From: Legionella birminghamensis
GTDB lineage: Bacteria > Pseudomonadota > Gammaproteobacteria > Legionellales > Legionellaceae
Reading direction: 5' to 3'
Length of the DNA stretch: 64,000 nt
Assembly: GCF_900452515.1 (NCBI RefSeq)
Contig: NZ_UGNW01000001.1
Location: 3,369,501 to 3,433,500, forward strand
Position numbers and translations under genes: made by a program. Under the pieces are notes generated by a model that did no database searches, was not told the DNA's origin, and worked only from the letters and a program-made list of their open reading frames with translations. Shown here in pieces: positions 43,675 through 60,336 of this stretch. Each line of letters starts with the position of its first letter. The first letter of the stretch is position 1.

Positions 43675-43758
43675 TTTAATCTCCTGATTACAAAAAAATA
43701 CAGACTTTCAACACATAAATAAAATAACTGGTTCCAATCGTTGTGATAAGGATTATTT

Positions 43759-44598
43759 ATGTCACTGATAATGGATGATATAAAGTATTTCATAACCGTT
43801 AGTGAAACACTCAACATAACACGTGCTTCCGAGATTATTGGTATTTCTCAGCCAGCATTAAGCTATGCCGTGAAAAGACTAGAGAATGAACTGGGTGGAC
43901 AGCTGATTATCAGACTTAAAAATGGAATTCAGTTAACCAAGCTGGGGGAAGAGTTTATACAGCACTCCCGCCGTCTCTTGTATGAATGGGAGCAGGTTCA
44001 AAATTTGGCCAAGGCCGAGCTCGGCCTGGTGCAGGGCAGCTATACCATTGCAGCCCACCCCTCAGTAGCCCTTTATACCTTTGAACATTTTATGCCTAAA
44101 TTGCTGGCTGATTTTCCAAAACTGAATTTTAATTTTATTCACGGTCTTTCAAGGGAAATGACCGAAAAAGTGATTAGCTGGGAAGCTGATTTTGGAATTG
44201 TAGTAAACCCGATCAAGCATCCTGATCTGGTCATTAGTCGGCTTAGTAGCGATGAAGTCACTATTTTCCATGTTGAGGGCGCAGCAAATAAACTAATCTA
44301 TGATCAGAATCTTGCCCAATCTCAATACATCCTAAAAAAACTTGGCCAGAAAAACCGTTTTGACGGTGTGCTAAACTCGGCAAACCTTGAGATCGTAGCC
44401 AAGTTAACTTCCCTGGGACTCGGCTACGGATTCCTGCCAACCCGGGTAGCTTCACAATACAAGCAACTTCAAAAATTAAAAGATGCCCCTTTATTTAAAG
44501 ATGAGATTTGCCTGATATACCGCCCGGAAAAACATAGAACCCTGGTGAGTAAAAAAATTATTCAGATTATTAAGCTATCACTGAGCCAGACCTCCTAG
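43759..44598 (+). CDS. LysR-family regulator of the isocyanide operon
   Basis: A 279-residue regulator with a typical N-terminal winged helix-turn-helix (LNITRASEIIGISQPALSYA; about 18-37) and a shorter than usual type 2 periplasmic-binding effector domain. It is divergent from pvcA with 84 bp between the starts, the classic arrangement for a LysR protein that controls the neighbouring operon (as PtxR and PvcR do for the Pseudomonas pvc genes). The intergene contains ATAAATAA at 43715 and TTATTTAT at 43753 as inverted repeats, a weak candidate binding site. Its 3' end overlaps the FAH gene by 4 bp. Confidence 0.88.
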   Translation: MSLIMDDIKYFITVSETLNITRASEIIGISQPALSYAVKRLENELGGQLIIRLKNGIQLTKLGEEFIQHSRRLLYEWEQVQNLAKAELGLVQGSYTIAAHPSVALYTFEHFMPKLLADFPKLNFNFIHGLSREMTEKVISWEADFGIVVNPIKHPDLVISRLSSDEVTIFHVEGAANKLIYDQNLAQSQYILKKLGQKNRFDGVLNSANLEIVAKLTSLGLGYGFLPTRVASQYKQLQKLKDAPLFKDEICLIYRPEKHRTLVSKKIIQIIKLSLSQTS

Positions 44599-45227
44599 AT
44601 CCAGTTCACCTGATAGGAATACTTTCCCCAGCTTAATTCGCCTCGGGTGTTCCGCGATATTGAAGTCACCCCGGCTGGAGTACCGGTGAAAATAATATCG
44701 CCTGCTTTTAAAGGAAAGAAATGGCTGATATAAACCAGCAAATCCTCAGGCTGCATCATCATATCGCTTCCTTTTGCAGCTTGACGAAGATTGCCGTCGA
44801 GTGACAATTGAAATTCCGTCTCCATATAGTCTGGAAATTGGCAGTAAGGAATCCAGGGGCCAAGAATCGCAGCATCCTTAAACACCTTCGCAGTAGTCCA
44901 GGGATGCCCTTGTTTCTTTAGCGCGGATTGGCGCGCCCTTAATGTCATATCAAGGCCGAGGCTAAGATCTGAGATAGCATTCACTGCATCCTCGCGGTTC
45001 ATGCGATAAGCATCGCAAGCAAGGCGAAGCACAATCTCGCATTCAGGTTGCACGGCAGTGTCCTCCGCTGGAAAATCAGCAACGATTTGCTCACCCCAGG
45101 CACTAGCCTGTTTCAAGACGCTGGCCGGTTTTAAAAACAGCACAGGCTTTTCTGGCAGCGCTTCGCCAAGTTCTTTGGCATGCTCAAGATAATTTTTTCC
45201 CACGCAAACTATTTTATCAATAGACAT
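44595..45227 (-). CDS. Fumarylacetoacetate hydrolase-family protein (FAHD1/YcgM type)
   Basis: A 210-residue metal-dependent enzyme with the FAH fold. The N-terminal IVCVGKNYLEHAKELG, the metal-binding PECEIVLRL (Glu-x-Glu) and the closing FTGTPAGVTSI are clear. This short group includes acylpyruvases and oxaloacetate decarboxylases. It converges with the LysR gene and ends inside it by 4 bp. It may be unrelated to the isocyanide genes; its substrates would be ring-cleavage products or oxaloacetate. Confidence 0.88.
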   Translation of the reverse strand: MSIDKIVCVGKNYLEHAKELGEALPEKPVLFLKPASVLKQASAWGEQIVADFPAEDTAVQPECEIVLRLACDAYRMNREDAVNAISDLSLGLDMTLRARQSALKKQGHPWTTAKVFKDAAILGPWIPYCQFPDYMETEFQLSLDGNLRQAAKGSDMMMQPEDLLVYISHFFPLKAGDIIFTGTPAGVTSISRNTRGELSWGKYSYQVNWI

Positions 45228-45244
45228 CGAGTGTTCCTTTAAGC

Positions 45245-46177
45245 TTACCCCATCTGATAAGCATTATTATCAATCAGTATTTCAAGACTATCTAATTTTT
45301 CAGCGGAGTCCGTTTTATTGAAAAACAGGCCTCCATTAATGGCGACTGCAATCCCATACAGAAGGCCAAACCCTAAAATGGCAAGCCCGAAATTGCCCAA
45401 CACCCGCTTCCAGCCTCTATGCTTGTCCAACTCCTCATGACCCTTTTGAATAGCCTTCTTCGATTCCCTTCTAAAGGTGATATAAGCTTCCTCGCTTGGA
45501 TGGGAAAAATAGGTTTCTGAGAGATCAGTGAGACTTCGATGAAGCGCATCAGCCGCATCAGCCGCAGTTATATGCTTATCCTTTCGCAATTTTTGTGCTT
45601 TTTGTGAAATAATCTGCAACTGCTCAGTAAACGCTTCTCGCTTTTTTTCCAGGTTTACTGAAAACAATATGCCTTTCTTAATCTCAAGGACTTCTTTATC
45701 TACCACAGCCTTGAGTAATCGATCAGGGCTTGAAACCTTTGCAATCTCCCGGCTCTTTGCAAGCTGTTCAGTAATCGCTTTGCTGAGCGGAGACTCCTCA
45801 TGGCCGATAGAAACCAGCGTGACGGGTGAATCTTTTTTCTTGATTTCGGAGAGAAGTTTCTTGATCAGCTCTTCTTTCTTTGGGCAGGATACATCATACA
45901 TAATCACAAATTGGGCGTTAGAACTTTCATTTAGAGCGAGAAGGGCAAGAATGTTTTCTAAACCCTCAGCAGAACACGAACCAGAAGTTGGGGCGCTGGA
46001 ATGACCAGAGTCGTTATAAGTCCAGTCCTCGTCTACTTGATAAAATTTAAACTTTTCATCCTCTGCATCAATTAAAATCCCAGTTACATTAATTTCTTTT
46101 TTAGGCACGGACTTCTCCAGCACAGCTAGTTTTGGCCAATAATAACGCAGGTCTGATAATTGGTAAACCAGAATCAA
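45245..46177 (-). CDS. Legionella-type protein with C-terminal membrane anchor
   Basis: A protein of about 310 residues of unknown function. The soluble body contains a possible alpha/beta region (INVTGILIDAEDEKF; AQFVIMYDVSCPKKEELI). The C-terminus has RGWKRVLGNFGLAILGFGLL, a single membrane helix, then FFNKTDSAEKLDSLEILID. I associate this anchor-and-tail with a set of Legionella proteins and possible effectors. The start is uncertain: only TTG (46177) lies in frame, without a ribosome-binding site, yet the frame is open upstream and reads a further hydrophobic segment (RYLETVIPLLLILVY). A CTG at 46210 overlapping the upstream stop codon could be the true start. Confidence 0.62.
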   Translation of the reverse strand: MILVYQLSDLRYYWPKLAVLEKSVPKKEINVTGILIDAEDEKFKFYQVDEDWTYNDSGHSSAPTSGSCSAEGLENILALLALNESSNAQFVIMYDVSCPKKEELIKKLLSEIKKKDSPVTLVSIGHEESPLSKAITEQLAKSREIAKVSSPDRLLKAVVDKEVLEIKKGILFSVNLEKKREAFTEQLQIISQKAQKLRKDKHITAADAADALHRSLTDLSETYFSHPSEEAYITFRRESKKAIQKGHEELDKHRGWKRVLGNFGLAILGFGLLYGIAVAINGGLFFNKTDSAEKLDSLEILIDNNAYQMG

Positions 46178-46206
46178 TAGTAATGGAATTACTGTCTCAA
46201 GATATC

Positions 46207-47436
46207 TCAGGATAAAACCACTAATTTCGCTTCCATACTCCGAATTTTTTTATAGTCTGAGAAAATCAAATCACGCTCGCCGGACAAGGCCACAATTCCA
46301 ATGCTGCTTAAGTAATCAACAGTATGAGGTACGCGATCCCCGTTCTTAAACCAAATGTATTTATCCAACAGAGTGGGTAATTCAGAAACCCCAGCAATCG
46401 CTTCAACATTGGATATTATTCCCTCAGCGGGTGACTTCAGAAAAACAGGGATTACCGATTTTTTGAACTGATACTCTTTGGTCAGAACATCGCCATTGAC
46501 ATAGGCTTCAACTAATTTATCAGCCTGACTGCTACCGGTCGCTTCGCGAGCGAATCGAACAGTCGGCCCGCCACATATTCTTGCGCCTGATTCAATAAGC
46601 CGTGGTCCATTTGCCGTTAGCATAATTTCAGTGTGTGCAGCACCCCAACGAACTCCTAAAGCGTCCAGGACCTGTTGAGTATAGGCAAATAACTCCTTAT
46701 GCCTTTGATCGCAGTAAGGTAGAAATTCTACATAATCGAAAACTGTTTTACGTCCATGAAACGATGTTTTATTGTACTGTATCAAATGTGCCAAATAATG
46801 CTTTCCATTGGCGCTCACAGTACCGACCGCAAACTCTGTACCCATTGCCTGTTCTTGCACAACAACCGTTTCACTCTTTTTACCCGTCGTTTTAGAGGGC
46901 TCCTGCAACACTTTTTTAAAAGCCTCTTTCCAATCCTGGTTTACGTTAATATGAAACACCTTGTCGCTGCCAGCAGACAGGGGCGGCTTAACTATTAATG
47001 GGGAATGTTGCAGTCCATTTTCCCTGATCCATAATTCCACTTCTTTTTCTGACGCAGTGTTGATTGTCTTGAGGTGCGGCACCCCAGCTTCCTCCAGAGC
47101 AGTTTGCATGTAGGCCTTATGTATCCTATGCAGCGATCTTCTAGGATCATTTGAAAGATGGGGCGTTAATGCCTGGGTCAATTGTTCCGCTAGAGCTACA
47201 CCTCGTTCGTCGCCTGGAATAATAGCAAGGGGATTATAGTCTCTAAGGATTCCTACAAGATTCGGCTGATCAGGAATAATGGAAATGAAATCGGAGGTTT
47301 GAACTTCCAGGCCAAAACCTATCTCCTCGAGCGATTTAAAGGTAACCGCAACAGAAGGTATGCCCCTGGATCTAAATGCCGGCGCTAAATCTATTCCCGA
47401 TGATAATGGATCAACAATGACGACCGGTCTATTCAT
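46207..47436 (-). CDS. ATP-grasp ligase, amino acid ligase type
   Basis: A 409-residue ATP-grasp enzyme. It has an N-terminal Rossmann-like domain (VVIVDPLSSGIDLAPAFRSR), the central ATP-grasp fold (PLIVKPPLSAGSDKVF; VVVQEQAMGTEFAVG; the metal-site run GAAHTEIMLTANGPRLIESG with ARICGG) and a C-terminal extra domain. It looks like L-amino acid ligases such as BacD, which join amino acids or similar small acids via an acyl-phosphate. It is 4 kb from the isocyanide operon and co-directional with 45245-46177, so it could belong to a peptide natural-product pathway; that is inference. Confidence 0.85.
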   Translation of the reverse strand: MNRPVVIVDPLSSGIDLAPAFRSRGIPSVAVTFKSLEEIGFGLEVQTSDFISIIPDQPNLVGILRDYNPLAIIPGDERGVALAEQLTQALTPHLSNDPRRSLHRIHKAYMQTALEEAGVPHLKTINTASEKEVELWIRENGLQHSPLIVKPPLSAGSDKVFHINVNQDWKEAFKKVLQEPSKTTGKKSETVVVQEQAMGTEFAVGTVSANGKHYLAHLIQYNKTSFHGRKTVFDYVEFLPYCDQRHKELFAYTQQVLDALGVRWGAAHTEIMLTANGPRLIESGARICGGPTVRFAREATGSSQADKLVEAYVNGDVLTKEYQFKKSVIPVFLKSPAEGIISNVEAIAGVSELPTLLDKYIWFKNGDRVPHTVDYLSSIGIVALSGERDLIFSDYKKIRSMEAKLVVLS

Positions 47437-49477: not shown

Positions 49478-50059
49478 ATGAATACATTAAAACGCGACAA
49501 CCTATACTCCCATATGAAAGTCGGCCTCGTTTACCGGAGAGAGGACTTGTTGCCTTTTTCAAGCAATTTGGATAGGGACCTCAATGCCTTAGTAAAAGCA
49601 AACAAGCTCAAAAAGCCAGCAACCGGTTTATATTACAAACCAAAGCATTCCCGTTTTGGATTACTACCACCGACTGATGAGGCACTTGTTAAAGGTTTTC
49701 TAAATAAACCCTTTCTTATGTATTCATGGAATGATTACAATAAATTGGGCTTAGGCCTAACACAGCTTTATAACCAAGTAGTTGTTTATAACAGTGAACG
49801 CCATGGGGATAAAAGGCTTGGAAATCGAGTTTTCTCTTTTAAACGCCCAAATAATGGTTTCCCAACTAAGCTGACTAAAGAATTTTTATTGGTGGACTTA
49901 TTAAATAATGCTAAGTATTTAACGGAAGATGTAAGCCAATTGCAATTAAAAATTGCTAAAAACCTCGATCAGTTTGATAAAGTCCAGTTGATAAAACTAT
50001 CTGCCAAGTATGGCAAAGTTGCCACCAGAAAATATTTACATACCCTCCTCGGAAACTAA
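49478..50059 (+). CDS. AbiEi-like antitoxin (type IV toxin-antitoxin)
   Basis: A 193-residue protein with the winged-helix start of the AbiEi/DUF6088 class: VYRREDLLPFSSNLDRDLNA, then LKKPATGLYYKPK. The C-terminal domain has the pattern that antagonises the paired toxin. It is followed after 1 bp by an AbiEii nucleotidyltransferase gene, the usual order. AbiE systems act in phage abortive infection and plasmid or island stabilisation. The antitoxin frame itself is intact even though the toxin is broken. Confidence 0.82.
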   Translation: MNTLKRDNLYSHMKVGLVYRREDLLPFSSNLDRDLNALVKANKLKKPATGLYYKPKHSRFGLLPPTDEALVKGFLNKPFLMYSWNDYNKLGLGLTQLYNQVVVYNSERHGDKRLGNRVFSFKRPNNGFPTKLTKEFLLVDLLNNAKYLTEDVSQLQLKIAKNLDQFDKVQLIKLSAKYGKVATRKYLHTLLGN

Positions 50060-50060
50060 T

Positions 50061-50996
50061 ATGTTTTTACACGAATTACCTGATGCAAAAGATTTATTCA
50101 TGGTTATTTCCGAAGAGAGAGGCATAAGCCCCAGTATTGTTGAGAAGGATTATTGGGTTATGCATGCCTTGTGGGGATTGCAATAACAGCACGAGTTTGA
50201 GTTAAAAGGAGGAACGTCATTATCTAAAGGTTTTAATCTCATCAATCGATTTTCTGAGGATATTGATGTTCAAGTACACCCCGAACCAGAACTCAACCTG
50301 AAGATTGGCAAGAACCATGACAGGACAAGTCACATAGAAGCAAGAAGCACATTTTTCGATGATGTATCTGACAATTTGGCAATACAAGACCTATCTTTTA
50401 GCCGTGATCACGAATTTGATGATAAAAAAATGAGAAGTGCCGGAATCAGGGGTCACTACCTCTCTCATTTTGAGCCTCTTAAAGCCTTAAAGGAAGGTAT
50501 TTTATTTGAAATGGGATTTGATAGAACAACGCCATATGAAGAAAAAGATATTAGCTCCTGGGCTTATGACAAGGTAATAATGTCCGGCATTAAAGTCTTT
50601 GACAACAGGGCATTAAAAGTAAAATGTTATTGCCCGGAATATACTTTTGTAGAAAAGCTACAAACCATCTCCACAAAGTATCGTAGACATAAATCTGAGA
50701 AGATCAACTCACCGGTTAATTTTATTCGACACTATTATGATGTCTATATGTTACTACAAAATGAAAGGATACTTAACTTTATCAGTACGAAGGATTACAA
50801 ATCATACAAGGCTGAAAAATTTGGTCGAGATGATGAATTAAATCTATGCAGAAATCCTGCTTTCTTATTATCAGAAGCTGGCGAGCTGGAAACCTTTTCC
50901 AAACTTTACGATCAAAAATCTGAAATATATTTTGGCAATCACCCTCAATTCAGTGAAATTCTTGAACTGATCAAACAGTACATCACTAAAATATAG
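50061..50996 (+). pseudogene. AbiEii-like nucleotidyltransferase toxin with premature stop
   Basis: The frame begins ATG at 50061 and would code 311 residues, but TAA at 50184-50186 (codon 42) interrupts it, in the context CAA-TAA-CAG. A single C-to-T change from CAA would create it. The catalytic marks come after the stop: LKGGTSLSKGF and FSEDIDV, the GS-x10-D-x-D-type nucleotidyltransferase site. No ATG restores them in front, so the toxin is probably inactive unless the stop is read through. The rest of the frame to 50996 is undisturbed, so the loss looks recent. Confidence 0.85.
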
Positions 50997-51364: not shown

Positions 51365-51410
51365 TGGCTCCCCGGACAGGACTCGAACCTGTGACCTAAT
51401 GATTAACAGT
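51365..51410. repeat. Left attachment-site copy (tRNA-Asn 3' fragment)
   Basis: Begins TGGCTCCCCGGACAGGACTC and is identical for 46 bp to the intact tRNA's 3' part, diverging at 51411. The anticodon arm's 5' side and the acceptor partner are absent, so it is not a functional tRNA. Confidence 0.92.
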
Positions 51411-51530
51411 TATAAAATTACGGCTTTTAAGGTCTTTTACCAGATTTTAAATTCTTCTAACATCCCTTTGTTTACGAGGGCTTTTGCCATTTTTTTGGTA
51501 TAAGCTCTTTTATTATGTTTTAATTAATTC

Positions 51531-51551
51531 TTCGACACATGTTCGACACGT
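51531..51551 (+). promoter_or_regulatory. Candidate integrase-binding (arm) site, left
   Basis: TTCGACACATGTTCGACACG followed by T is a tandem TTCGACACN doublet. It matches 60138-60158 at 20 of 21 bases. Position just inside both attachment sites suggests an integrase or excisionase arm site. Confidence 0.65.
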
Positions 51552-51570
51552 TTTAGAAAAGCATAAATTG

Positions 51571-52813
51571 GAAGTCAATATTAGAATCACAAAATCAGCC
51601 CTTGATAAATTACCCAAACCTGTTTCAACCACTCCCGGAAGAACGGCACAAAAGTGATATTATGATGATTCCATGAAGGGGTTTGGCGTTAGGATCACTT
51701 CTGGTGGAACAAAAGCCTTTTTTGTTGAAAAACTGATAAAGAATAAACTTTCTCGCATTACACTAGGTCGCTACCCAGATCTCACGGTTGAAATGGCGAG
51801 AAAAGAAGCGCAAAAATTACTCGGGCAAATTGCAACAGGTTTGGATCCAGTTGCCGAAAAGCGCGCTGAAAAAATGCGGGAACTATCATTAAATGATGTA
51901 TTTATTGATTACGTAAAAGTGCGTAAATCACTAAAACACAATACGCTCTATAACTATAAAAAAGTCTTAGGAACTGCTTTTGCCAATTGGGATAATAAGC
52001 CGTTCCTTGCCATTACAAAAGACAAGGTCGCAAAACACCATCAAAAGTTAGGCCAAGAACGTGGAGAAGCCTATGCCAATTTAGCCATGCGCCTACTGCG
52101 AGCACTTTTTAATTTTGCTGCCGGTCAATATGAAGATAGCAAAGGCCGATCGTTAATTACCGAAAATCCTGTGAAACGTTTATCCCAGACTCGAGCCTGG
52201 TATCGAGTTGAGAGACGCCAAAGTGTTATTAAGGCACATGAACTAGCACCTTGGTATGTTGGTATACAACAACTTGATAATGAGATTGTCAGGGATTACC
52301 TATTATTAATTTTATTTACTGGCTTACGTCGTCAGGAAGCAGCCACTTTACGCTGGGCTCAAGTCGATTTAAAACTAAAACACTGACGGTTCTCGATACT
52401 AAAAACCATGAACCACATACCCTCCCGCTTTCCAACTACTTGTTCGATCTGCTCTTGGCACGCAGTCATAACAAAATCAATGATTACGTTTTCCCGGGCA
52501 ATGGTGCTGGAGGTTATATCATCGAACCTCGAAAGCAAATGGCACATGTTATTAAATCATCTGGTATTCATTTTACTGTACACGATCTAAGACGCACCTT
52601 TATTACCATTGCTGAAGGAATTGATATTTCAGCTTATGCCTTAAAACGCTTAATGAACCATAAAATGAATGGGGATATTACAGCAGGATCGTGACTGATG
52701 TGGAGCGTTTAAGAAAACCCATGCAACAAATTACAGATTATTTCTTAAAATGTATGGGCATTCAACCATCCGCCACAATATTAGCAATCCAGCCATCACA
52801 GAACGAGATATAA
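51571..52813 (+). pseudogene. Degraded P4-type tyrosine integrase
   Basis: The reading can be followed from about 51568 (TTG) with the DUF4102 start VNIRITKSALDKLPKPVSTT. An in-frame TGA interrupts at 51655-51657. The body runs intact from 51673 through the SAM-like domain and the catalytic Arg in LFTGLRRQEAATLRW. The frame is then lost near 52375 by one base, resumes (TLTVLDTKNHEPHTLPLSNY; VHDLRRTF; LMNHKMNGDITAG) and is lost again near 52690. A missing 4-base step there (GCAGGATCGTG, where GCAGGATATATCGTG is expected) removes the nucleophile Tyr. The tail (IVTDVERLRKPMQQI) ends at 52813. The enzyme is surely inactive. Confidence 0.9.
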
Positions 52814-52820
52814 CAGATTT

Positions 52821-52943
52821 GTGTTAAAACTTATTTAATATATCGATTTTCATTATATTGTAAAAGTTTTAACACAGGTAAATAAAATCATGGTGTTCAT
52901 TTTTTTATGTTGTTCATATTTATTGAACACAATAAATATGAAC
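52821..52943. repeat. Two perfect hairpins in the integrase-antitoxin gap
   Basis: GTGTTAAAACTT (52821-52832) pairs with AAGTTTTAACAC (52864-52875), 12 bp. GTTCATATTTATT (52912-52924) pairs with AATAAATATGAAC (52931-52943), 13 bp with a 6-base loop. They could be replication, transfer or regulatory sites. The gap 52814-53144 also holds GGGACATCAGGGACAAGTGG (from 52961), whose near inverse occurs at 57959-57990; no gene is seen. Confidence 0.6.
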
Positions 52944-53144
52944 ATGTGAAAAAAATTGCAGGGACATCAGGGACAAGTGGGGCACCCACGCCATTACTGG
53001 TTTGGAGCAGTCCCTCTCCCATTTTTCATTGGTGGGATGCATGGGCCATTGTATGTCCAATGATAAAAGTATTGATAAATTGAGAGATAAAGAGCTTAAA
53101 ACTTGTTATTCTCTAGCGCGATCGTCACATTAAATCAATTTATT

Positions 53145-53174
53145 TGTCACAAATAATGGTATATAATTGTGACA
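53145..53174. promoter_or_regulatory. Candidate AbiEi operator overlapping a promoter
   Basis: TGTCAC (53145-53150) and GTGACA (53169-53174) form an inverted repeat around TATATAAT (a -10-like box), and another GTCAC is at 53124-53128. AbiEi antitoxins repress their own operons by binding such repeats. Confidence 0.5.
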
Positions 53175-53188
53175 TGAGTGGAGGGGAT

Positions 53189-53794
53189 ATGCCAAATTTT
53201 CTTGCGGAAAAGATAAAAAAGCGCATTCATGACAAAGGTGACGGGTGGTGTTTTACCCCTGCTGATTTTTCTGATATTGCCAATAATGATGTCGTGAGAC
53301 AAACATTATCACGCTTAAATAAAGTTGGTTTTATTGACCGACTAGCACATGGTGTTTATTACTTACCTAAGTATCATGATTCTCTAGGTAAGCTACCACC
53401 GAAAATGGAGGCTATTATCGACGCCATACAAAATGCTTATCATATAAAATGCCAACCTACAGGCGCTTATGCAGCTAATCTGCTAGGCTTGAGTGAACAG
53501 GTACCTACCAATATAGTGCTCTTAACTAATGGGCCTTCAAAAAAAATTCAAATTGGAAATAAGAAACTTATTTTCAAAAGAACAACCCCCAAAAATATGG
53601 AAACAGCTGGAACAATTACGGGTTTAGTTATTCAGGCAATGAAATATATTGGAAAAGAGCATATTGATACAAAGTATCTAAATCAGATTAGAAGTCGTTT
53701 ATCTGAAGAGCAACTAAAACGCATAAACCGAGAAATACATTTGGCTCCAGCATGGATTGCCAAACTGATAAAGTCTGAAGTGATTGGAGAATAA
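53189..53794 (+). CDS. AbiEi-like antitoxin (DUF6088), intact pair
   Basis: About 201 residues. An N-terminal winged helix-turn-helix (FTPADFSDIANNDVVRQTL; then RLAHGVYYLPKY) is followed by a C-terminal domain ending IHLAPAWIAKLIKSEV, matching DUF6088/AbiEi antitoxins. The ATG at 53189 has GGAGGGG immediately upstream and lies clear of the operator repeat; the earlier in-frame start at 53144 lies within that repeat. The toxin gene follows at 1 bp. Both members of this second pair are intact, in contrast to the pair at 49478-50996. Confidence 0.85.
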   Translation: MPNFLAEKIKKRIHDKGDGWCFTPADFSDIANNDVVRQTLSRLNKVGFIDRLAHGVYYLPKYHDSLGKLPPKMEAIIDAIQNAYHIKCQPTGAYAANLLGLSEQVPTNIVLLTNGPSKKIQIGNKKLIFKRTTPKNMETAGTITGLVIQAMKYIGKEHIDTKYLNQIRSRLSEEQLKRINREIHLAPAWIAKLIKSEVIGE

Positions 53795-53795
53795 A

Positions 53796-54821
53796 TTGAA
53801 TAATTTTGCAAATTTACCTGAAAGTGAGAAGCAAGCATATTATGAATTTACCGCTGATAAAAAGGGGTTGCCAGAATATATTATTGAAAAAGACTTTTGG
53901 GTTTGTTGGAGTTTAAAACAATTATTTTTATTATCCGATATTGGCGAAAATCTCATATTTAAAGGCGGAACCTCTCTCTCAAAAGCGTATCAATTAATTG
54001 AACGTTTTTCAGAAGATATTGATATTTCAATTGATAAAAAATATTTAGGGTTTATCGAAGAACGAGATCCTGAACAAGTGTCTTCCAAAAAGAAACAACA
54101 AGCACTCATTAAGGAACTAGCTGTTGAATGCTCTGAGTTCGTGCAAAACAAATTAAAAAATGAGATTGTTTCTCAATTTTCTAAGGAACTTAAATCCGTA
54201 GATGTTAATTGGTATATTGAAATTGATCCTTCAGATGTTGATAGGCAAACACTATTATTTTATTACCCAACATTATCTAAGCCCACAACTGACTCATATA
54301 TTCGCCCGGCTGTAAAGATAGAATTAGGTGCAAGAGGTGCGGGCAACCCATTTAATATATGCAATATTTCACCTTTCATTAAGGAAGATATTACAGATGC
54401 AAATTTAACTTCAAGCATAGAAATTAAAACATTATCAGCCGAAAGGACATTTTGGGAAAAAGCTACCATATTACATATGTATGCAAATTGGCCTGAAAAT
54501 AAACCATTGCCATTAAGACAGTCCAGGCATTTTTTTGATTTTTATAAACTTATTAAATCTAATATAAAACAAATAGCGGCGCGAGATTTAAGTTTGCTTG
54601 AAAATGTTGTTGAACATAAAAAAATTTACTTTCGGGCTGGATGGGCAAATTATGATGATGCTAGAAAAGGCTCTCTAAATCTTATTCCTTCAAGTGAAAT
54701 GTTAAAAGCTTTTGAAAATGACTATAGACTGATGAAAGAAATGTTTTATGGTGAGCCCGTAAGTTGGGATGAAATTATTTCTCAAATAAAGAACTTTGAA
54801 ACTGAATTCAACATCTTATAA
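53796..54821 (+). CDS. AbiEii-like nucleotidyltransferase toxin
   Basis: About 341 residues. The nucleotidyltransferase site is complete: IFKGGTSLSKAYQ and, 12 residues later, FSEDIDIS with the two metal Asp residues. A later Lys/Glu-rich region contains TLSAERTFWEKATILH, a motif of this DUF1814 family. AbiEii-like toxins add nucleotides to tRNA or other substrates and stop growth when the antitoxin is lost. The start is taken as TTG at 53796, correctly spaced from GGAGA; another TTG at 53784 overlaps the antitoxin. The pair likely stabilises the element and may block phage. Confidence 0.87.
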   Translation: MNNFANLPESEKQAYYEFTADKKGLPEYIIEKDFWVCWSLKQLFLLSDIGENLIFKGGTSLSKAYQLIERFSEDIDISIDKKYLGFIEERDPEQVSSKKKQQALIKELAVECSEFVQNKLKNEIVSQFSKELKSVDVNWYIEIDPSDVDRQTLLFYYPTLSKPTTDSYIRPAVKIELGARGAGNPFNICNISPFIKEDITDANLTSSIEIKTLSAERTFWEKATILHMYANWPENKPLPLRQSRHFFDFYKLIKSNIKQIAARDLSLLENVVEHKKIYFRAGWANYDDARKGSLNLIPSSEMLKAFENDYRLMKEMFYGEPVSWDEIISQIKNFETEFNIL

Positions 54822-55072
54822 AAAACATCATTAGGCAAAGATCAAACGATATCATTCAATAACAGTTCTTTGAATTCGAACTTTTTCCCTTGACAATCTT
54901 TGAAGGAATACGCAATATTTTTTCCAAGCTTGAATTATAAGCTTTCATAGCCAACAAAGGCTAATGAATATCAATGGCTTGTCCAAGTATAGACGGATAG
55001 GCATTTGAGTTCATACACAGGGACGTGCAGGTCGGCATTATGCCGAATGAATAATCAATTGCGGAGATCCCT

Positions 55073-55348
55073 ATGTCTGCTCAAAAATTATCCCGTTTAC
55101 ATCTATTAAACGAATTTGAATCTGCGCCACATTCTGCGCTTTTTAATCAACAAACAATCGCTGCGGTATTAAGCTGTTCCACCCAATTACTTGAACGTAA
55201 CCGTTGGTCGGGTGGTGGTGTTCCTTATTTGAAAATCGGTCGTAAGGTATTGTACCGAAAAAGTAATGTGTTGAATTTTCTCCAACAACAAAAAATTTAT
55301 TACTCAACTAGTGACGAGGGTCAGTTACAGCTCGTTGAGAACGCATAA
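55073..55348 (+). CDS. Excisionase/AlpA-like helix-turn-helix protein
   Basis: A 91-residue DNA-binding protein. The middle part (IAAVLSCSTQLLERNRWSGG, then GVPYLKIGRKVLYRKSNVLNFL) is the winged helix of the HTH_17/excisionase family: a helix-turn-helix followed by a wing with a conserved Arg and Tyr-Arg. In P4-like and integrative elements such genes (AlpA, Xis) control excision or integrase expression. It lies between the AbiE pair and the DUF927 gene. The site GGAGAT is well placed. The gap 54822-55072 holds no gene. Confidence 0.8.
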   Translation: MSAQKLSRLHLLNEFESAPHSALFNQQTIAAVLSCSTQLLERNRWSGGGVPYLKIGRKVLYRKSNVLNFLQQQKIYYSTSDEGQLQLVENA

Positions 55349-55414
55349 ATTTAAAATTCGTCAGAATGAATTTGCTTCATTCCGATGGTTTGACTGTTGT
55401 TTGGAGAATAATGT

Positions 55415-57164
55415 ATGTCACAAAATCATGTTATTGAATTACCCAATACACCGAGGCTGCGCCCAGTTTTTTGCGACTATGCTGGCGGTCGCTTTCGATT
55501 AACTGCTGAGGGATTAACCTTTATTGGTATTGATAAGGACGGCAATCCACTACCACCTCGGTGGATATGCGCGCCATTGTATGTCGTTGCGAAAACACGC
55601 GATGCCCAAAGTGGCGAATGGGGTCGTCTTTTGGATGGAAGGATGATGACGGAATCACTCACCAATGGGCAATGCCCCTGGCTTTGTTACAAGGCGATGC
55701 GTCTGATGTGAGGCGAGAATTGGCAAGATTAGGATTGAGTATTTCACCTAATAGAACTGCTCGCGATTTATTAGCCTCCTATTTACAAGTCTTTCCAGTA
55801 GACGCACGTGCACGATGTGTTGATAAACTTGGTTGGCATGGCGATGTCTTTGTAACAGCATCCCAATGCATCGGGCAATCAACTGAGAAGATTGTTTTCC
55901 AGAAACCAATGCCATTGAGCCAGCTGTGTCTATCAATGGTAGCGTTGAAGAATGGCGCGACTCAATAGGTCGGTTGGCATCAGGCAACTCAAGATTGGTG
56001 TTTGCCATATCTGTAGCATTAGCCCCTGTACTGGCAAAAATTGTTGGCGAAGACTCAGGCGGTTTTCATTTCAGAGGTGCGTCTTCATCAGGCAAAAGCA
56101 CTGCATTGAGTCTGGCTGCCTCTGTTTGGGGAAACCCACAATCCTATTGCCGTTTATGGCGCAGCACCACCAATGGCCTTGAAGGCTTAGCATCATTACA
56201 CAATGATGGATTATTGATTCTTGATGAACTCAGTCAAATGGATCCCAGCGAAGCAGGAGAAGCAGCTTATTTGCTAGCTAATGGTCAGGGAAAAACACGT
56301 GCTTCTCGTACAGGTACAGTCAGGCAATCATCCCGATGGTCTTTATTTTTCTTATCTGCTGGTGAAGAGTCTTTGACAGCACTCATGGCAAAATCAGGGC
56401 AACGCATTAACGCTGGTCAGGAAATCAGGCTTGCTGATATTGAAGCGGATGCAGGTTACGGTATGGGGATCTTTGAAACAATTCATGATCAACTAAGCCC
56501 TGCCAGCATGGCATTATCGCTAAAGAAATACAGCAGCCGATATCATGGCGCAATCGGTATGGCGTGGCTGAATCAAGTAGTTTCCAATCGACAAACAATC
56601 AGCCGATATATCACCGATACCATTCAAACCTTTGTTGATGTAGTCATTCAGCCTGATGCAACAGGTCAGATAATCCGTGTTGCCAGACGCTTTGCATTAG
56701 TTGCTGCTGCCGGAGAACTGGCCAGTCAATTTGGTCTGACAGGATGGCAAAAAGGCGAATCTATTCATGCTGCGAAGACTTGCTTCATTGCATGGCAAGA
56801 AGCTTTTGGGGTTGATGGTCACCGCGAAGATCGCGCCATTATGGCGCAAGTACGTGCCTTCTTCGAATCTCATGGTGCCAGCCGCTTTGATAATGCCAAC
56901 TCACCTAACAACGACAAGATTCTCAACCGAGCAGGATTTTATCAAACAGATGATGAAGGGTTTCGAATCTACATGGTGTTAACCGAGGCGTACAAGAATG
57001 AGCTGTGCAAAGGCTTTGATCAACGCACCGTGACAAGGGTTTTATTGCAAGCCGGCTGGCTGAAACCCGCTCCGGATGGTAAAGCCTCACATAAGCCAAG
57101 GATCAAAGGAGTTGGCACCCCAAGATTGTATGTATTTACCGGTAAAATTTGGGGAGGTGAATAA
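55415..57164 (+). pseudogene. DUF927-domain helicase, frameshifted twice
   Basis: The 1,750-bp gene begins ATG 55415 behind GGAGA, in a frame that reads LYVVAKTRDAQSGEWGRLL. It then slips near 55637 (TTGGATGG, where TTGGAATGG is expected), continues as WKDDDGITHQWAMPLALLQG, slips again near 55900, and finishes in the long frame with the Walker A FRGASSSGKST, Walker B-like LLILDELSQMD and a C-terminal helical domain. Each slip fits loss of one base. DUF927 proteins are AAA+ helicase/primase-associated proteins of integrative elements and phage satellites and drive replication. As read, only the ATPase part (55926-57164, from a GTG) could be made. Confidence 0.85.
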
Positions 57165-57218
57165 AATTGCCTATACCACCGGTTTTTATGTTGAGCACCG
57201 AAGGTGCGAATAAGGCTT

Positions 57219-57440
57219 GTGAAGTTTGGTAACCAGCCTGCTGGTTAGCTAACTTCACCTATCTTGCCCTGCATTTTGAAATTTATTTTGGAACCGTCTT
57301 TTGGTAATTATGCGTTATATAACGATTAGTAACGAAGATAATCAAGAATAAACAGAAATAAATAATAAATTACCGAAAGTTACCAAAAAGGGCTTGCCAG
57401 TGACTGAAAAAGTCATAAATAAATAGAAATAAACGATAAA
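57219..57440. other. Hairpin and repeated AT tract: possible origin or transfer site
   Basis: GTGAAGTTTGGTAACCAGC (57219-57237) pairs with GCTGGTTAGCTAACTTCAC (57240-57258), a 19-bp stem with two mismatches and a 2-base loop. Downstream, AATAAACAGAAATAAATAAT plus AAA (57347-57369) recurs with three mismatches at 57418-57440. The stretch lies between the helicase gene and the TraK-like gene and holds no open frame. Such structure is common in origins of replication or transfer; it is a candidate only. Confidence 0.5.
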
Positions 57441-57479
57441 ACTCAAAGGATTGATTAGCCATTTTACAGAGAGTAGATC

Positions 57480-57842
57480 ATGAAAAAATCCTTAACAGAA
57501 AACTTAACGACTTCTAAACAAGGTCAACAAAAAACGAACTCCAGGAAAAATAAAGTGGAGTTTCTTGCGTTACGCGAAGATATTTCCGAAGCCTTGGAAA
57601 AAGGATGGTCGATTACCATCATATGGGAAACTCTTAGGGATGAGGGAAGCTTCACTGCAACTTACAATACGTTCCGGTTGTACGTATTGAAATACCTTAA
57701 TGGTCAAAAGCCAGGGTATTCGCAAAATAAATCTGTTGAAGTTCGAGCTAAGAAGTCAGTTGGGAGTTCCAGTAAGACAAAGGATACCTCTACCCCCTCA
57801 TTTAAATATAATCCTATTCCAAATATAAAAGATTTATTGTGA
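57480..57842 (+). CDS. TraK-family mobilisation protein
   Basis: A 120-residue basic protein. The central part (KVEFLALREDISEALEKGWS, then ITIIWETLRDEGSFTATYNTF) matches a conserved TraK-family pattern (x-FLA-R-x-D-I-x-x-A-L-x-x-G-x-x-x-x-x-IW), a short helix-turn-helix-like domain. The C-terminus is Lys/Ser-rich. In IncP plasmids TraK binds the transfer origin; in integrative elements similar proteins mark mobilisable units. It lies next to hairpin and repeat DNA that could be its target. No relaxase gene is present, so transfer would depend on another element. Confidence 0.72.
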   Translation: MKKSLTENLTTSKQGQQKTNSRKNKVEFLALREDISEALEKGWSITIIWETLRDEGSFTATYNTFRLYVLKYLNGQKPGYSQNKSVEVRAKKSVGSSSKTKDTSTPSFKYNPIPNIKDLL

Positions 57843-58174
57843 TCGTTTAATTTTGTGCGACAAGAACAGTGCTTTTGTTAATATACCGAAACAATTATTT
57901 GTCCCTTATGCCCCACCTTCAACATATAAGGTGGGAATGCATTTAGCCCTTTATTTATGCGGGTGCCCCAGTTGTCCCGATTGTCCCGTGTATTTTTTAT
58001 ATGTCTGCGAATCAATTATTATTTTGTTTAGGAATGATAGTTTGATTTCCTCGTTTGCAAGCAAACGGCCTACTTGCTGATCAATTTAGAGAATATGCTA
58101 TATTTGAACTATATTCGATAAATTTGTATATACAATTACCTTTTATTATTCATCAGTTAAGGGATTAATATTTT
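57843..58174. other. Non-coding gap with relic sequence
   Basis: The 332 bases hold a 75-codon frame (57853-58080) that I judge spurious: it is Cys-rich and has no ribosome-binding site. GGGTGCCCCAGTTGTCCCGA TTGTCCCGTG (57961-57990) is an inverted, imperfect match to GGGACATCAGGGACAAGTGG GGCACCCAC at 52961-52989, perhaps relics of a shared coding or transfer region. Confidence 0.4.
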
Positions 58175-58417
58175 ATGAGTAAGCATCATTATATCCCACA
58201 ATTTTACTTGAAAAGGCGGCTAAATCCTAACGGGTATATTCATTGTTACAATTATATTTCAGATGAGTTGGTTAGTTTTCAAAAAAAATCTGTAACAGAT
58301 ATTGGCCAAGTGAAAAATTTATATAAAGACTTAGAAGTTAATCATTATGCCACATTGGATGGAGAAGCTGACAATGTAATAAAAATTATAGATGAGGTGT
58401 TAAGGAGAATGCTATGA
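58175..58417 (+). CDS. DUF4238-like protein, truncated
   Basis: The first 80 residues of what is normally a protein of about 250-300 residues. The start MSKHHYIPQFYLKRRLNPNG is the strongly conserved DUF4238 opening (HHYxPQFYLKxF). The rest of the domain is missing: the frame stops at TGA 58415-58417, overlapping the next ATG by 4 bp. DUF4238 proteins are of unknown function and often lie in variable islands near defence genes. The end could be truncated by deletion, or this is a short variant that works with the next gene. Confidence 0.7.
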   Translation: MSKHHYIPQFYLKRRLNPNGYIHCYNYISDELVSFQKKSVTDIGQVKNLYKDLEVNHYATLDGEADNVIKIIDEVLRRML

Positions 58418-58761
58418 GCAATGATTTTTATATCGCCAGAAAAGAATCTTTTGATCTATCAAACTTACAAAAAAGTGAAAATTTATTAATTGTTTCTTTT
58501 AACATCAAAGTATTAGATAAATTTAGCAGTAACCCAGATTATTCTATTAATCTTAATAACGATGTAGGCGTTTTGAGTTCACAAACAGAAGGATGGAGCT
58601 TACAAATTGATGTTAATTATGATTGTGGTTATTTGTCTACTTGGTTATATAAATTAAGCAATCTTCCTGATATTCAAAAAAAACATTTTGAAACTCACAA
58701 TATTTATGCCCGTGAATTGAGTCCTACAGCATATAGAAGATGGGTGGAGGGCAAACCCTAA
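58414..58761 (+). CDS. Small protein of unknown function coupled to the DUF4238 gene
   Basis: A 115-residue protein whose ATG overlaps the stop of the preceding gene (ATGA), so the two are translated together. Mostly beta-like with aromatic residues (GWSLQIDVNYDCGYLSTW) and a basic tail (SPTAYRRWVEGKP). It has no signal peptide or membrane helix. Size and coupling would suit a toxin or antitoxin partner, but I recognise no family. Confidence 0.55.
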   Translation: MSNDFYIARKESFDLSNLQKSENLLIVSFNIKVLDKFSSNPDYSINLNNDVGVLSSQTEGWSLQIDVNYDCGYLSTWLYKLSNLPDIQKKHFETHNIYARELSPTAYRRWVEGKP

Positions 58762-59041
58762 CATGGGTAGATCGAATACTATCGACGTTGTTTGGGTGCA
58801 TGACAAATTTATGATGAATACTCAGGAAATATTAAGTTATGTGGCTATTAGCTTGATTATGGCCTTTACTTATTAAGGATGATGCGAGACAAAATGTTGA
58901 ATCAATAAAACTAGCACTAGATGACAGAGATAAAATACACCTAGCAATCGGAGATACTGTCTTTAAAAGCAAGCCAAATTTTCATTAAAAGACAGTATGC
59001 ATCAAAACAATTTAATTTGAATAATCGCTGGATTTAACTAT
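58762..59041. other. Gap upstream of the SIR2-like gene
   Basis: A 37-codon frame (58763-58876, MGRSNTIDVVWVHDKFMMNT...) starts 1 bp after the preceding stop but has no support. Downstream bases read in one frame as an Asp/Lys-rich fragment (58890-58985), perhaps a gene relic. The stretch is AT-rich and must hold the promoter of the SIR2-like gene if it is not read from upstream. Confidence 0.35.
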
Positions 59042-60118
59042 ATGAATAAGGAAATAGAAAATGGCATCATTTTTTTAATAGAAAACTTTTTTAGAAAGAA
59101 TTCATTGTATTTAGTTGGGTCAGGAATATCTATTAAATATGCTAAAACCATCTCTGCTACAAAGTCCGCTATAAAAACAAGTATTTTTAATAGTGGCTCG
59201 TTCCCAGTAGAAATAAATAAAAATCCTAGCGATTTGCAAAAAAGTCTAATAGAACAACCATCTTTTGCTGAAATCCAAGAAACGATACCATGGCTTTATT
59301 TTAATTGCACTCCAAATGCCAGATTTGAAAACGAGTACTTAAAACACATACTCCCGACAATTCCTGAAAAATGTCCAGAATATGAAATTTTTAATTTTTG
59401 CCAATCTGGTGATATTTTTGATTTTAATCATGATGGATTAAGTTGTCGGTTTATAAAAAATAAAAATATTTTAATCCAACATCCTCATGGAAAGTTTCCT
59501 TGCCATGCTGCAGATTTTCTAAATTCTTTAGATGATTTAAGCCTAGATTATGACTTAAAATTATTTGAGCATTGGGAAATACATCCCCCCTTAAAAGAAA
59601 AGGAAAGTATATTATTTAGCCACCCATATAATTATTTAAGAAATAATTTCAACCAATATGACAATATTTTTATTATGGGCTATTCATTTTGTGATGATGG
59701 AAATGATATGAATGACATGTTCTATTTTCACTTAATTTCGGAATTAGCCTCACGGTATCAGAAAAGATTGTATATTATTAATCCTAGTTACGAACAGTTA
59801 GCAGAGAGACTAACCTCAGAAATTGAAGAAATATATTGTTGCCCTATTAAATGGAATATATTTGCAAATGTTTTTCTAAATGAAATTGGATGTTACCCTT
59901 TTATTAATTTTATAAAATCTATAGGGATTGCAAATCGTTTGCTAAGGGATGAAGAAGAAACACCCTTAAGTTTAGAATTAGCCAAATTAAAATTGTTGAA
60001 TCCATCTCTCTGGAAGTTATATTACAAGCAAGCCTGGAAGCAACATAAAGAAAAAAGGGATTCCTTTTCTATTATTAATCTTATTAAAAATTACTATTCT
60101 TTAGATGAGCAAGAATAA
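59042..60118 (+). CDS. SIR2-like NAD-binding protein, candidate anti-phage defence cargo
   Basis: A 358-residue protein with a diverged SIR2 fold. LYLVGSGIS at residues 23-30 replaces the GAGIS nucleotide-binding loop, FNFCQSGD at 117-124 holds the Asn that in SIR2 domains faces the ribose, QHPHGK at 146-151 has the catalytic-type His, and FIMGYSFCDDGND (210-222) is the GYS-x-x-D motif of defence-type SIR2_2 proteins. LYIINPS follows. SIR2 domains in prokaryotic immunity (for example Thoeris, DSR and SIR2-APAZ) destroy NAD on phage infection. It lies at the island end next to the attachment site, a usual cargo position. Nothing resembling a known second subunit is adjacent. The function is inferred. 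Confidence 0.8.
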   Translation: MNKEIENGIIFLIENFFRKNSLYLVGSGISIKYAKTISATKSAIKTSIFNSGSFPVEINKNPSDLQKSLIEQPSFAEIQETIPWLYFNCTPNARFENEYLKHILPTIPEKCPEYEIFNFCQSGDIFDFNHDGLSCRFIKNKNILIQHPHGKFPCHAADFLNSLDDLSLDYDLKLFEHWEIHPPLKEKESILFSHPYNYLRNNFNQYDNIFIMGYSFCDDGNDMNDMFYFHLISELASRYQKRLYIINPSYEQLAERLTSEIEEIYCCPIKWNIFANVFLNEIGCYPFINFIKSIGIANRLLRDEEETPLSLELAKLKLLNPSLWKLYYKQAWKQHKEKRDSFSIINLIKNYYSLDEQE

Positions 60119-60137
60119 TTTTAGCCATGCTTCAAAC

Positions 60138-60158
60138 TTCGACACATATTCGACACGT
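60138..60158 (+). promoter_or_regulatory. Candidate integrase-binding (arm) site, right
   Basis: TTCGACACATATTCGACACG followed by T matches 51531-51551 at 20 of 21 bases and lies 45 bp inside the right attachment site. Confidence 0.65.
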
Positions 60159-60203
60159 AAAATTTAAGGTGTGATTGATTTTCGCCAAAACCTAGACTGG
60201 AAT

Positions 60204-60249
60204 TGGCTCCCCGGACAGGACTCGAACCTGTGACCTAATGATTAACAGT
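60204..60249. repeat. Right attachment-site copy, within tRNA-Asn
   Basis: The 3'-terminal 46 bases of the intact tRNA gene, repeated at 51365-51410. They run from the CCA end into the anticodon loop. Confidence 0.92.
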
Positions 60250-60279
60250 CATCCGCTCTACCGACTGAGCTACCAGGGA
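60204..60279 (-). tRNA. tRNA-Asn (GTT)
   Basis: On the reverse strand the 76-base sequence begins TCCCTGGTAGCTCAGTCGGT and ends GGGGAGCCA with an encoded CCA. The D-arm, the anticodon stem-loop with CTGTTAA (anticodon GTT), and the T-arm GGTTCGAGTCC are complete; the TCCCTGG start pairs with the CCGGGGA side with one odd pair. It is the integration target of the adjacent element, and integration has restored its 3' end. Confidence 0.95.
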
Positions 60280-60336
60280 ATAAGGCGGAATCATAAAGAG
60301 ATCCCGCTTAAGAGTCAAGGGTTTTTATTCGCTTTT

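What the first reader, a model, noticed from the sequence alone, without database searches (positions are those of the whole stretch)
59042..60118. SIR2-like protein as cargo at the attachment-site end of a tRNA-Asn element: candidate new defence gene
The gene has the nucleotide loop GSGIS, a Q-H-P-H-G motif and G-Y-S-x-x-D as in SIR2 proteins of phage defence, and it is the last gene before attR. No usual partner (pAgo/APAZ, TIR, HerA, DSAD-type) is adjacent, and the C-terminal third (residues 230-358) shows no known domain. Its immediate upstream genes are a shortened DUF4238 protein and a 4-bp-coupled partner, so a stand-alone SIR2 or a DUF4238-X-SIR2 module are both possible. Standard knowledge: SIR2 domains in bacterial immunity deplete NAD.
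Basis: partly seen in the sequence, partly recalled or inferred. Interest (0 to 1): 0.72.

Follow-up and report, generated by a model that had tools for sequence, protein, structure and literature searches.

The report
Stand-alone SIR2-like gene on Legionella island
A small mobile DNA element in a Legionella-family bacterium carries a gene for a lone enzyme that resembles those which destroy the cell's NAD during phage attack; it is a distant, separate branch of a known defence enzyme class, so perhaps a new one-gene phage defence, still untested.

Summary
Window 59042-60118 encodes 358 aa with GSGIS (26), N-x-D (129), HG (149) and GYSF (213), the last gene before attR in tRNA-Asn (element 51365-60203, 8.8 kb, Legionellaceae).

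Pfam finds no SIR2 in any of five family rows; PADLOC Aga_SIR2 hits two, weakly (1.3e-4, 6e-5), a level unrelated controls also reach. But profile-profile comparison (score 88.4; 60 shuffles, maximum 20.0) and alignment with 20 SIR2 proteins (N129, D131, H149, G150, G213 invariant) make it SIR2-like, without a zinc module.

Five of 143 Legionellaceae genomes hold the family (four lineages), a separate branch (99/99) with a CPEYxxFN signature. The lineages share no neighbour gene, so a DUF4238-X-SIR2 module is not supported. All four lie near PADLOC-type genes (AbiE, PDC-S13/S15/S41, type IIG R-M), but so do two SIR2-free copies of the same tRNA site, so this is weak support.

Best reading: a stand-alone NAD-cleaving abortive-infection effector, a new variant of the SIR2_2 class. 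Catalysis, trigger and protection are inferred. The structure model failed (pLDDT 34). Bench tests are referred.

The parts
59042..60118 (+). SIR2-like protein, 358 aa; G-loop 26-30, CPEYEIFN 111-118, N-x-D 129-131, HG 149-150, GYSF 213-216; SIR2 core to about residue 275, then an ~80-aa tail
   Evidence: core limit inferred from conservation
60204..60279 (-). tRNA-Asn (gtt); its 3' 49 bp (60204-60252) is attR
51365..51413 (+). attL: 49-bp copy of the tRNA-Asn 3' end, 98% identical
51530..51551 (+). 22-bp inner direct repeat (TTCGACAC twice), probable integrase arm site, left end
   Evidence: role inferred
60137..60158 (+). 22-bp inner direct repeat, right end, just after the SIR2 stop
   Evidence: role inferred
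51673..52386 (+). tyrosine integrase, N-terminal part (Arm-DNA-bind_3, Phage_int_SAM_1); reading frame interrupted, a C-terminal-like piece lies at 52440-52694
   Evidence: C-terminal piece by eye, no Pfam hit
53144..53794 (+). AbiEi-type antitoxin (DUF6088)
53784..54821 (+). AbiEii nucleotidyltransferase toxin
55073..55348 (+). weak HTH_17 match (below cut-off), excisionase-like by eye
55415..57164 (+). DUF927 protein split over ORFs 55415-55711 and 55926-57164
57480..57842 (+). DUF5338 small protein
58175..58417 (+). DUF4238 fragment (profile 1-81 of 281), remnant
58414..58761 (+). 115-aa protein without family; relative in G111 lacks SIR2
58954..58998 (.). 19-bp imperfect inverted repeat, 7-nt gap, between the 115-aa gene and SIR2; terminator or operator (inferred)

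Best explanation
The gene encodes a stand-alone SIR2_2-type enzyme carried as cargo by a small, now partly decayed, integrative element in tRNA-Asn of a Legionellaceae chromosome. Most likely it cleaves NAD+ with the conserved Asn129/His149 pair when a phage (or rival mobile element) signal relieves its inhibition, so the infected cell stops growing before phage release. SHOWN: gene, element ends, SIR2 motifs and catalytic residues, a separate branch, no CxxC zinc module, transfer between two genera at the same site, no shared neighbour gene, PADLOC-type genes near all four lineages. INFERRED: the Rossmann/SIR2 fold, NAD hydrolysis, phage triggering, the sensing site (perhaps the CPEY segment and the ~80-aa C-terminal tail), abortive infection.
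For: Profile-profile comparison of the 5-row family (A2) with 25 pooled SIR2 ORFs: probability 97.5, score 88.4; 60 column shuffles mean 12.1, maximum 20.0; the part before the GYS segment alone scores 51.1. Plain MAFFT with 20 SIR2 proteins: N129, D131, H149, G150, G213, D225 invariant in 25 of 25 rows. The ordered pattern hit 26 of 321 ORFs, none outside SIR2 loci and this family. N and H correspond by motif to the residues whose loss abolishes Nezha immunity (N168/H227, PMC11559045 section 8) and that make the DSR2 catalytic mutant (N133A/H171A, PMC10973363 passage). No CxxC anywhere in the protein, as in SIR2_2 proteins that lack the zinc module (PMC12700824 passages). Block 57687-60319 is 96.8% identical to L. 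wadsworthii, against 72.3% for the flanking chromosomal genes, so it moved horizontally; G+C is 28.9% for the gene, 47.6% for the flank. The ORF has no indel and 9 substitutions in 1074 nt, while the 284 alignment columns before it have 10 mismatches and 6 gaps. PADLOC hits among the neighbours that I scanned: AbiE pair (window, G008), PDC-S15 and PDC-S41 (G008), type IIG R-M (G140), PDC-S13 abutting the gene (G134).
Against: No phage or NAD measurement. The AlphaFold model with 3 rows failed (pLDDT 34.4); the better job never started. Pfam shows no SIR2 family in 5 of 5 rows; NCBIfam none for the window protein; PDB sequences only at chance level. None of the 25 SIR2 ORFs is among the 40 best ORFs ranked by the family's plain HMM. 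PADLOC Aga_SIR2 hits (19.4 and 20.5 bits) are no stronger than chance-like hits of 2 of 10 control proteins, and 3 of 5 rows have none. Defence genes also lie at the tRNA-Asn site without SIR2: an AbiE pair in G004 (1.4e-91, 1.1e-98) and PDC-M04A in G010 (3.7e-86), so the neighbourhood argument is weak. The SIR2 domain cut out of DSR2 is inactive (PMC10973363), and this protein has little room for a sensor. 6 of 9 substitutions against L. wadsworthii change the residue (ratio 0.46, too few to prove constraint), and the stop codon differs, adding 2 residues there. The G134 copy has a premature stop.
Confidence: 0.62

Rival explanations
1. DUF4238-X-SIR2 is one module: the DUF4238 and 115-aa proteins sense or restrain the SIR2 enzyme.
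For: Same order in the window and in L. wadsworthii; the ATGA overlap of DUF4238 and the 115-aa ORF.
Against: Both copies are one recently shared block. DUF4238 is a remnant. No match to either ORF was found around the G008, G140 and G134 relatives, and the G111 relative of the 115-aa gene has no SIR2. 280 bp separate the 115-aa gene from SIR2.
Confidence: 0.08
2. A SIR2 enzyme with a job for the element rather than phage defence: addiction, element exclusion, or ADP-ribosylation of a host or element protein.
For: Integrase- or phage-like genes lie near the window, G008 and G140 copies, and a phage-antirepressor-like ORF beside the G134 copy, the last three partly by eye. SIR2-type SirTM enzymes ADP-ribosylate proteins (PMC12700824 passage). 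Defence-type genes occur at the site without SIR2.
Against: No antitoxin-like partner is shared by the lineages; no zinc module, which deacetylation needs according to PMC12700824.
Confidence: 0.18
3. A decaying remnant with no present function, kept by chance beside the tRNA.
For: Integrase and DUF927 frames are interrupted; the G134 relative has a stop; 6 of 9 substitutions are non-synonymous; the family is sparse, 5 of 143 genomes.
Against: Open frame and all catalytic residues kept in G000, G149 and G008; no indel where the spacer before it has several.
Confidence: 0.12

Closest known systems
SIR2_2 / SIRim class (PF13289; ThsA, DSR1, DSR2, FAM118)
   Same: G-loop, N-x-D, HG, GYS in the same order; no zinc module
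   Different: Below detection by PF13289; separate branch 99/99 with CPEYxxFN
PADLOC Aga_SIR2 (argonaute-associated SIR2; meaning of the name recalled)
   Same: Only library hit, 1.3e-4 and 6e-5; L062 and L063 share the NHD form of N-x-D
   Different: Hit strength within control noise; no pAgo or APAZ recognised beside the gene
Short SIR2_2 proteins of other Legionellaceae (e.g. L075, L079, L083)
   Same: Similar length (open frames 342-355 aa), N-x-D, HG and GYS in register, same bacterial family
   Different: Match PF13289; other branches of the tree; no CPEY
DSR1/DSR2 single-gene SIR2 defence
   Same: One-gene design, N/H active site
   Different: Lacks the large C-terminal sensor that DSR2 needs; 358 aa in all
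Nezha (SIR2-HerA)
   Same: Conserved Asn/His essential for immunity there
   Different: No HerA-like helicase recognised beside it

Membership tests
SIR2-like (SIR2_2) domain | Ordered G-loop, N-x-D, HG, GYS motifs | tested here: met
SIR2_2 (PF13289) | Pfam match over the gathering score | tested here: not met
   no SIR2 family in 5 of 5 rows; G000 has no match
SIR2-like (SIR2_2) domain | Profile-profile similarity above shuffled controls | tested here: met
   against single SIR2 groups only 3.9-63.7%
SIR2-like (SIR2_2) domain | Rossmann fold with NAD pocket | tested here: inconclusive
   pLDDT 34.4; second job never accepted
Canonical deacetylase sirtuin | Zinc module with CxxC pairs after the HG motif | tested here: not met
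   no CxxC in P0001, none between N-x-D and GYS in 5 of 5 rows
Short pAgo SIR2 (SPARSA) | Adjacent pAgo and APAZ domain | tested here: not met
   none among the 13 ORFs scanned in 49.4-60.2 kb
Nezha (SIR2-HerA) | Adjacent HerA helicase | tested here: not met
Thoeris | SLOG or macro domain and TIR partner ThsB | tested here: not met
DSR2 | Large C-terminal sensor domain | tested here: not met
   358 aa
Anti-phage NADase | NAD hydrolysis and phage protection | not testable with these tools
   no assay available

The most novel reading that the evidence does not exclude
A minimal one-gene NADase defence, so far seen only in Legionellaceae, in which a ~350-residue SIR2 protein senses infection by itself through its CPEY segment and short C-terminal tail, without the large sensor or partner protein of the characterised SIR2 systems compared here (ThsA, DSR2, Nezha, SIR2-APAZ/pAgo).
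Probability: 0.32. Interest if true: 0.62.

Novelty: new variant of a known kind. Interest (0 to 1): 0.42.

Why it matters
The characterised SIR2 immune enzymes compared here rely on a partner or a large sensor domain. A compact branch without a visible partner, which Pfam misses in 5 of 5 rows and PADLOC in 3 of 5, would show that current scans undercount such enzymes, and would offer a small protein in which to ask how a bare SIR2 enzyme is held off and switched on. None of the 10 papers listed for the terms Legionella, DefenseFinder, PADLOC and SIR2 (at least three of the four) holds the word Legionella, so the candidate may fall in a little-studied host.

Tried and rejected
AlphaFold with the 3-row alignment gave pLDDT 34; I ran no fold search on it because such a model is meaningless.

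PDB sequence searches: only chance-level hits or none. tblastn with three family members in plasmids and phages: no match. Viral contigs, 4 scans: none. Genome contigs, one scan with 6 short peptides, which finds close relatives only: L. wadsworthii alone. Class (369 genomes, A1) and phylum (398 genomes, A2) draws: only the window's own genome at E up to 0.001. The phylum search also listed 29 other genomes at 0.006-0.095, 27 of them in one family and mostly with ORFs of about 1240 aa; I took them as chance and did not identify them. PHROGs: nothing below 0.03. The search named 'order' returned the same 143-genome number as the family.

The plain DNA search listed 7 of 143 genomes: G000, G149, a 68-bp match inside the G134 family member, and four more (G006, G051, G114, G143; 37-74 bp), which I rejected as chance. 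A1/A2 hits at E 0.003-0.33 in G044, G114, G115, G032, G168, G175, G116 and G129 were not counted as members. G134's piece has one Pfam hit below cut-off, a glycosyltransferase model (0.007), taken as chance.

SIR2 comparison set: of 31 loci L062-L092 I kept 25 ORFs. Dropped: L068 (the window's own) and L070, L086, L087, L090, L091, taken as near copies from equal or nearly equal lengths. Sequences were trimmed by rule. For A3 I used 20 of the 25; left out: L071, L073, L074 (near L072), L078 and L089 (motifs incomplete). L078 and L089 were still in the pooled hhalign target. In one search the HG column did not line up in two of three trial alignments; I had anchored on H147 instead of H149.

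Controls for PADLOC: 10 of the ORFs listed, then 9 more while checking this report, picked by eye and not at random. The second set was against my reading (AbiE in G004, PDC-M04A in G010); I lowered the main odds from 0.66 to 0.62 and the novel case from 0.35 to 0.32 for it, and raised two rivals.

Eukaryote-directed effector: considered and dropped; nothing in the sequence pointed to it, and no secretion-signal test was run.

Full report
WHERE IT LIES. The host is therefore Legionellaceae, species unknown.

THE GENE. 59042-60118 is a complete 358-aa ORF. Pfam and NCBIfam give no family even at E up to 10. PADLOC gives Aga_SIR2 at 1.3e-4 over residues 197-308 and SIR2 at 0.035 over 12-31; the L. 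wadsworthii protein gives Aga_SIR2 at 6e-5; the other three rows give none (E up to 10 for G008; up to 0.01 for G140 and the G134 piece). Ten control proteins from beside the same tRNA in other genomes gave PADLOC hits of similar strength (down to 1.4e-5) for 2 of 10. The library hit alone is therefore not evidence; the case rests on the relatives.

THE FAMILY. Single-protein and profile searches of 143 Legionellaceae genomes found five members: G000 (window), G149 (L. wadsworthii, 98% identical), G008, G140 and G134. G140 and G134 were found only with the profile. The G134 copy has an in-frame stop near the N-terminus, and the G140 frame has no ATG, GTG or TTG before the G-loop. Identity to the window protein is 98 (G149), 27 (G008), 21 (G140) and 26% (G134 piece). 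Invariant in the rows are, among others, CPEY (111-114), F117, N118, N129-H130-D131, L133, H149-G150, G213-Y214-S215-F216, D225, W271, F274 and Y327; the G134 row starts after the G-loop. No member was found in plasmids, phages or viral contigs, nor in 369 class or 398 phylum genomes beyond the window's own at E up to 0.001 (these draws overlap). The collections may omit near relatives of the window, as the tools state.

IS IT SIR2? Three tests. (a) Alignment: with 20 SIR2 proteins fetched by PF13289 or PADLOC Aga_SIR2 profiles, MAFFT without guidance placed the motifs in register; N129, D131, H149, G150, G213 and D225 are invariant in 25 of 25 rows; two rows start after the G-loop and one has a degenerate one. 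(b) Profile-profile: A2 against the pooled 25 SIR2 ORFs scores 88.4 (probability 97.5) on the GYS segment; 60 column-shuffled copies average 12.1, maximum 20.0, the reversed copy 16.4; the N-terminal part alone scores 51.1 on the G-loop. Against smaller SIR2 groups the result is weaker: 63.7% for Aga_SIR2, 50.3% for one group and 3.9-10.9% for three others. (c) Motif control: the ordered pattern hits 26 of 321 distinct ORFs, 22 in loci fetched as SIR2 and 4 of this family, none elsewhere. On the other side, none of the 25 SIR2 ORFs is among the 40 best ORFs ranked by the plain HMM of A2, no PDB sequence matches the 5-row profile at E up to 10, and the AlphaFold job with three rows failed (pLDDT 34.4), so the fold is inferred from sequence. 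A tree splits the five members from the 20 other SIR2 rows with 99/99 support; it is rooted at the midpoint and has long branches, so the place among them is unsure.

CATALYTIC RESIDUES. N129 and H149 match, by motif, the Asn/His pairs that are essential in Nezha (N168/H227; PMC11559045, outline and section 8 read) and that make the catalytic mutant of DSR2 (N133A/H171A; PMC10973363, passages seen). No CxxC occurs; PMC12700824 (passages seen) says that SIR2_2 proteins lack the zinc module that deacetylation requires. The N-to-H distance is 17-20 residues in the five rows.

THE ELEMENT. attL (51365-51413) and attR (60204-60252, inside tRNA-Asn) are 98% identical over 49 bp, 8,839 bp apart; an inner 22-bp repeat, probably integrase arm sites, lies at 51530-51551 and 60137-60158. 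Between them: an interrupted tyrosine integrase, an open AbiEi/AbiEii pair, a DUF927 gene split over two ORFs, DUF5338, the DUF4238 remnant, the 115-aa gene and SIR2. Mobility and replication genes are broken while the AbiE pair and SIR2 are open. In L. wadsworthii the last 2.6 kb (57687-60319) is present at the same tRNA-Asn with 96.8% identity, against 72.3% for the chromosomal genes beside it; no left att copy was found in the 17 kb held. The SIR2 ORF differs at 9 of 1074 positions with no indel (3 synonymous, 6 not; ratio 0.46), and its stop differs, adding 2 residues in L. wadsworthii; the spacer before it differs by 10 mismatches and 6 gaps in 284 columns. G+C: element 36.6%, gene 28.9%, flank 47.6%. 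All 11 genomes of the genus have this tRNA-Asn locus. In the 8 kb read in 10 of them, G006 has an integrase gene and G001 has, by eye, recombinase-like and DUF927-like ORFs; both have a second 49-bp tRNA copy (82-84%). So the site receives various elements.

PARTNERS. ORFs of 35 aa or more around the four distinct family loci and the G111 locus were compared; across the four SIR2 lineages only the SIR2 ORFs match one another, and the 115-aa gene matches only G111, which has no family SIR2. This argues for a stand-alone gene. The settings share a theme among the neighbours that I picked for scanning: G008 lies in an island with an integrase-like gene, an AbiE pair, PDC-S15 and PDC-S41, near tRNA-Pro; G140 near a type IIG restriction enzyme (1961 bits) and, downstream, an integrase-like end by eye; G134 abuts a PDC-S13 gene; the window has AbiE 4.2 kb away. 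So 4 of 4 lineages lie near a PADLOC gene. But a check at the tRNA-Asn site of SIR2-free genomes and of G008's own site found an AbiE pair in G004 (1.4e-91 and 1.1e-98) and PDC-M04A in G010 (3.7e-86); of the 19 proteins scanned from such sites, these 3 gave strong hits and 3 gave weak ones. Defence-type genes are thus common in this neighbourhood, no proper background rate was measured, and the association is weak support.

HOW IT MOST LIKELY WORKS. As in the published SIR2 systems, infection would relieve inhibition of a NAD-cleaving SIR2 domain and the cell would stop before phage release. Here the trigger is unknown. DSR2 needs its C-terminal domain (SIR2 alone is inactive), whereas this protein has only ~80 residues after the core, helical in a low-confidence model. 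Either the CPEY segment and the tail sense directly, or a host or phage factor does. Confidence: SIR2-like domain about 0.9; NAD-cleaving phage defence about 0.62.

NOVELTY. A new, sparse branch of a known enzyme class, missed by standard models; not a new kind of system. Short SIR2_2 proteins are not rare in the family: PF13289 matches 21 of 134 Legionellaceae genomes, many in open frames of 340-390 aa, so small size alone is not new. Searches of the paper library (listings only, apart from the three papers named) showed no description of this gene; most subscription papers are not held.

Noticed in passing
window 49478-50996: A second AbiE module just outside attL: AbiEi open (193 aa), AbiEii apparently missing its N-terminal part (Pfam stretch 72-210 of 238).
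   Followed up: partly
window 40342-47436: A run of genes that looks by eye like a small isocyanide (PvcA/PvcB-type) biosynthesis cluster with FAD monooxygenase and ATP-grasp genes; names recalled, not searched.
   Followed up: no
L003 4607-4656 and window 57898-57947: A 50-bp stretch of the element recurs about 2.3 kb further left in L. wadsworthii (86%), a possible dispersed repeat.
   Followed up: no
Legionellaceae genomes, loci L069-L092: SIR2_2 (PF13289) matches in 21 of 134 Legionellaceae genomes (16 over the cut-off), many in open frames of 340-390 aa and so with little room for a sensor domain.
   Followed up: partly
L031 8047-9531 (G140): The 494-aa ORF upstream of the SIR2 copy matches PADLOC pAgo and Aga_SIR2-PNTD profiles over part of its length (4.7e-13); by eye an AlbA_2-type protein.
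   Followed up: no
L030 8520-9362 (G134): A PDC-S13 candidate defence gene ends directly where the convergent, interrupted SIR2 copy ends.
   Followed up: partly
L110 4215-5689 (G004) and L114 5978-6709 (G010): An AbiE pair and a PDC-M04A gene within 8 kb of the same tRNA-Asn in genomes without this SIR2: the site looks like a general landing place for such cargo.
   Followed up: partly
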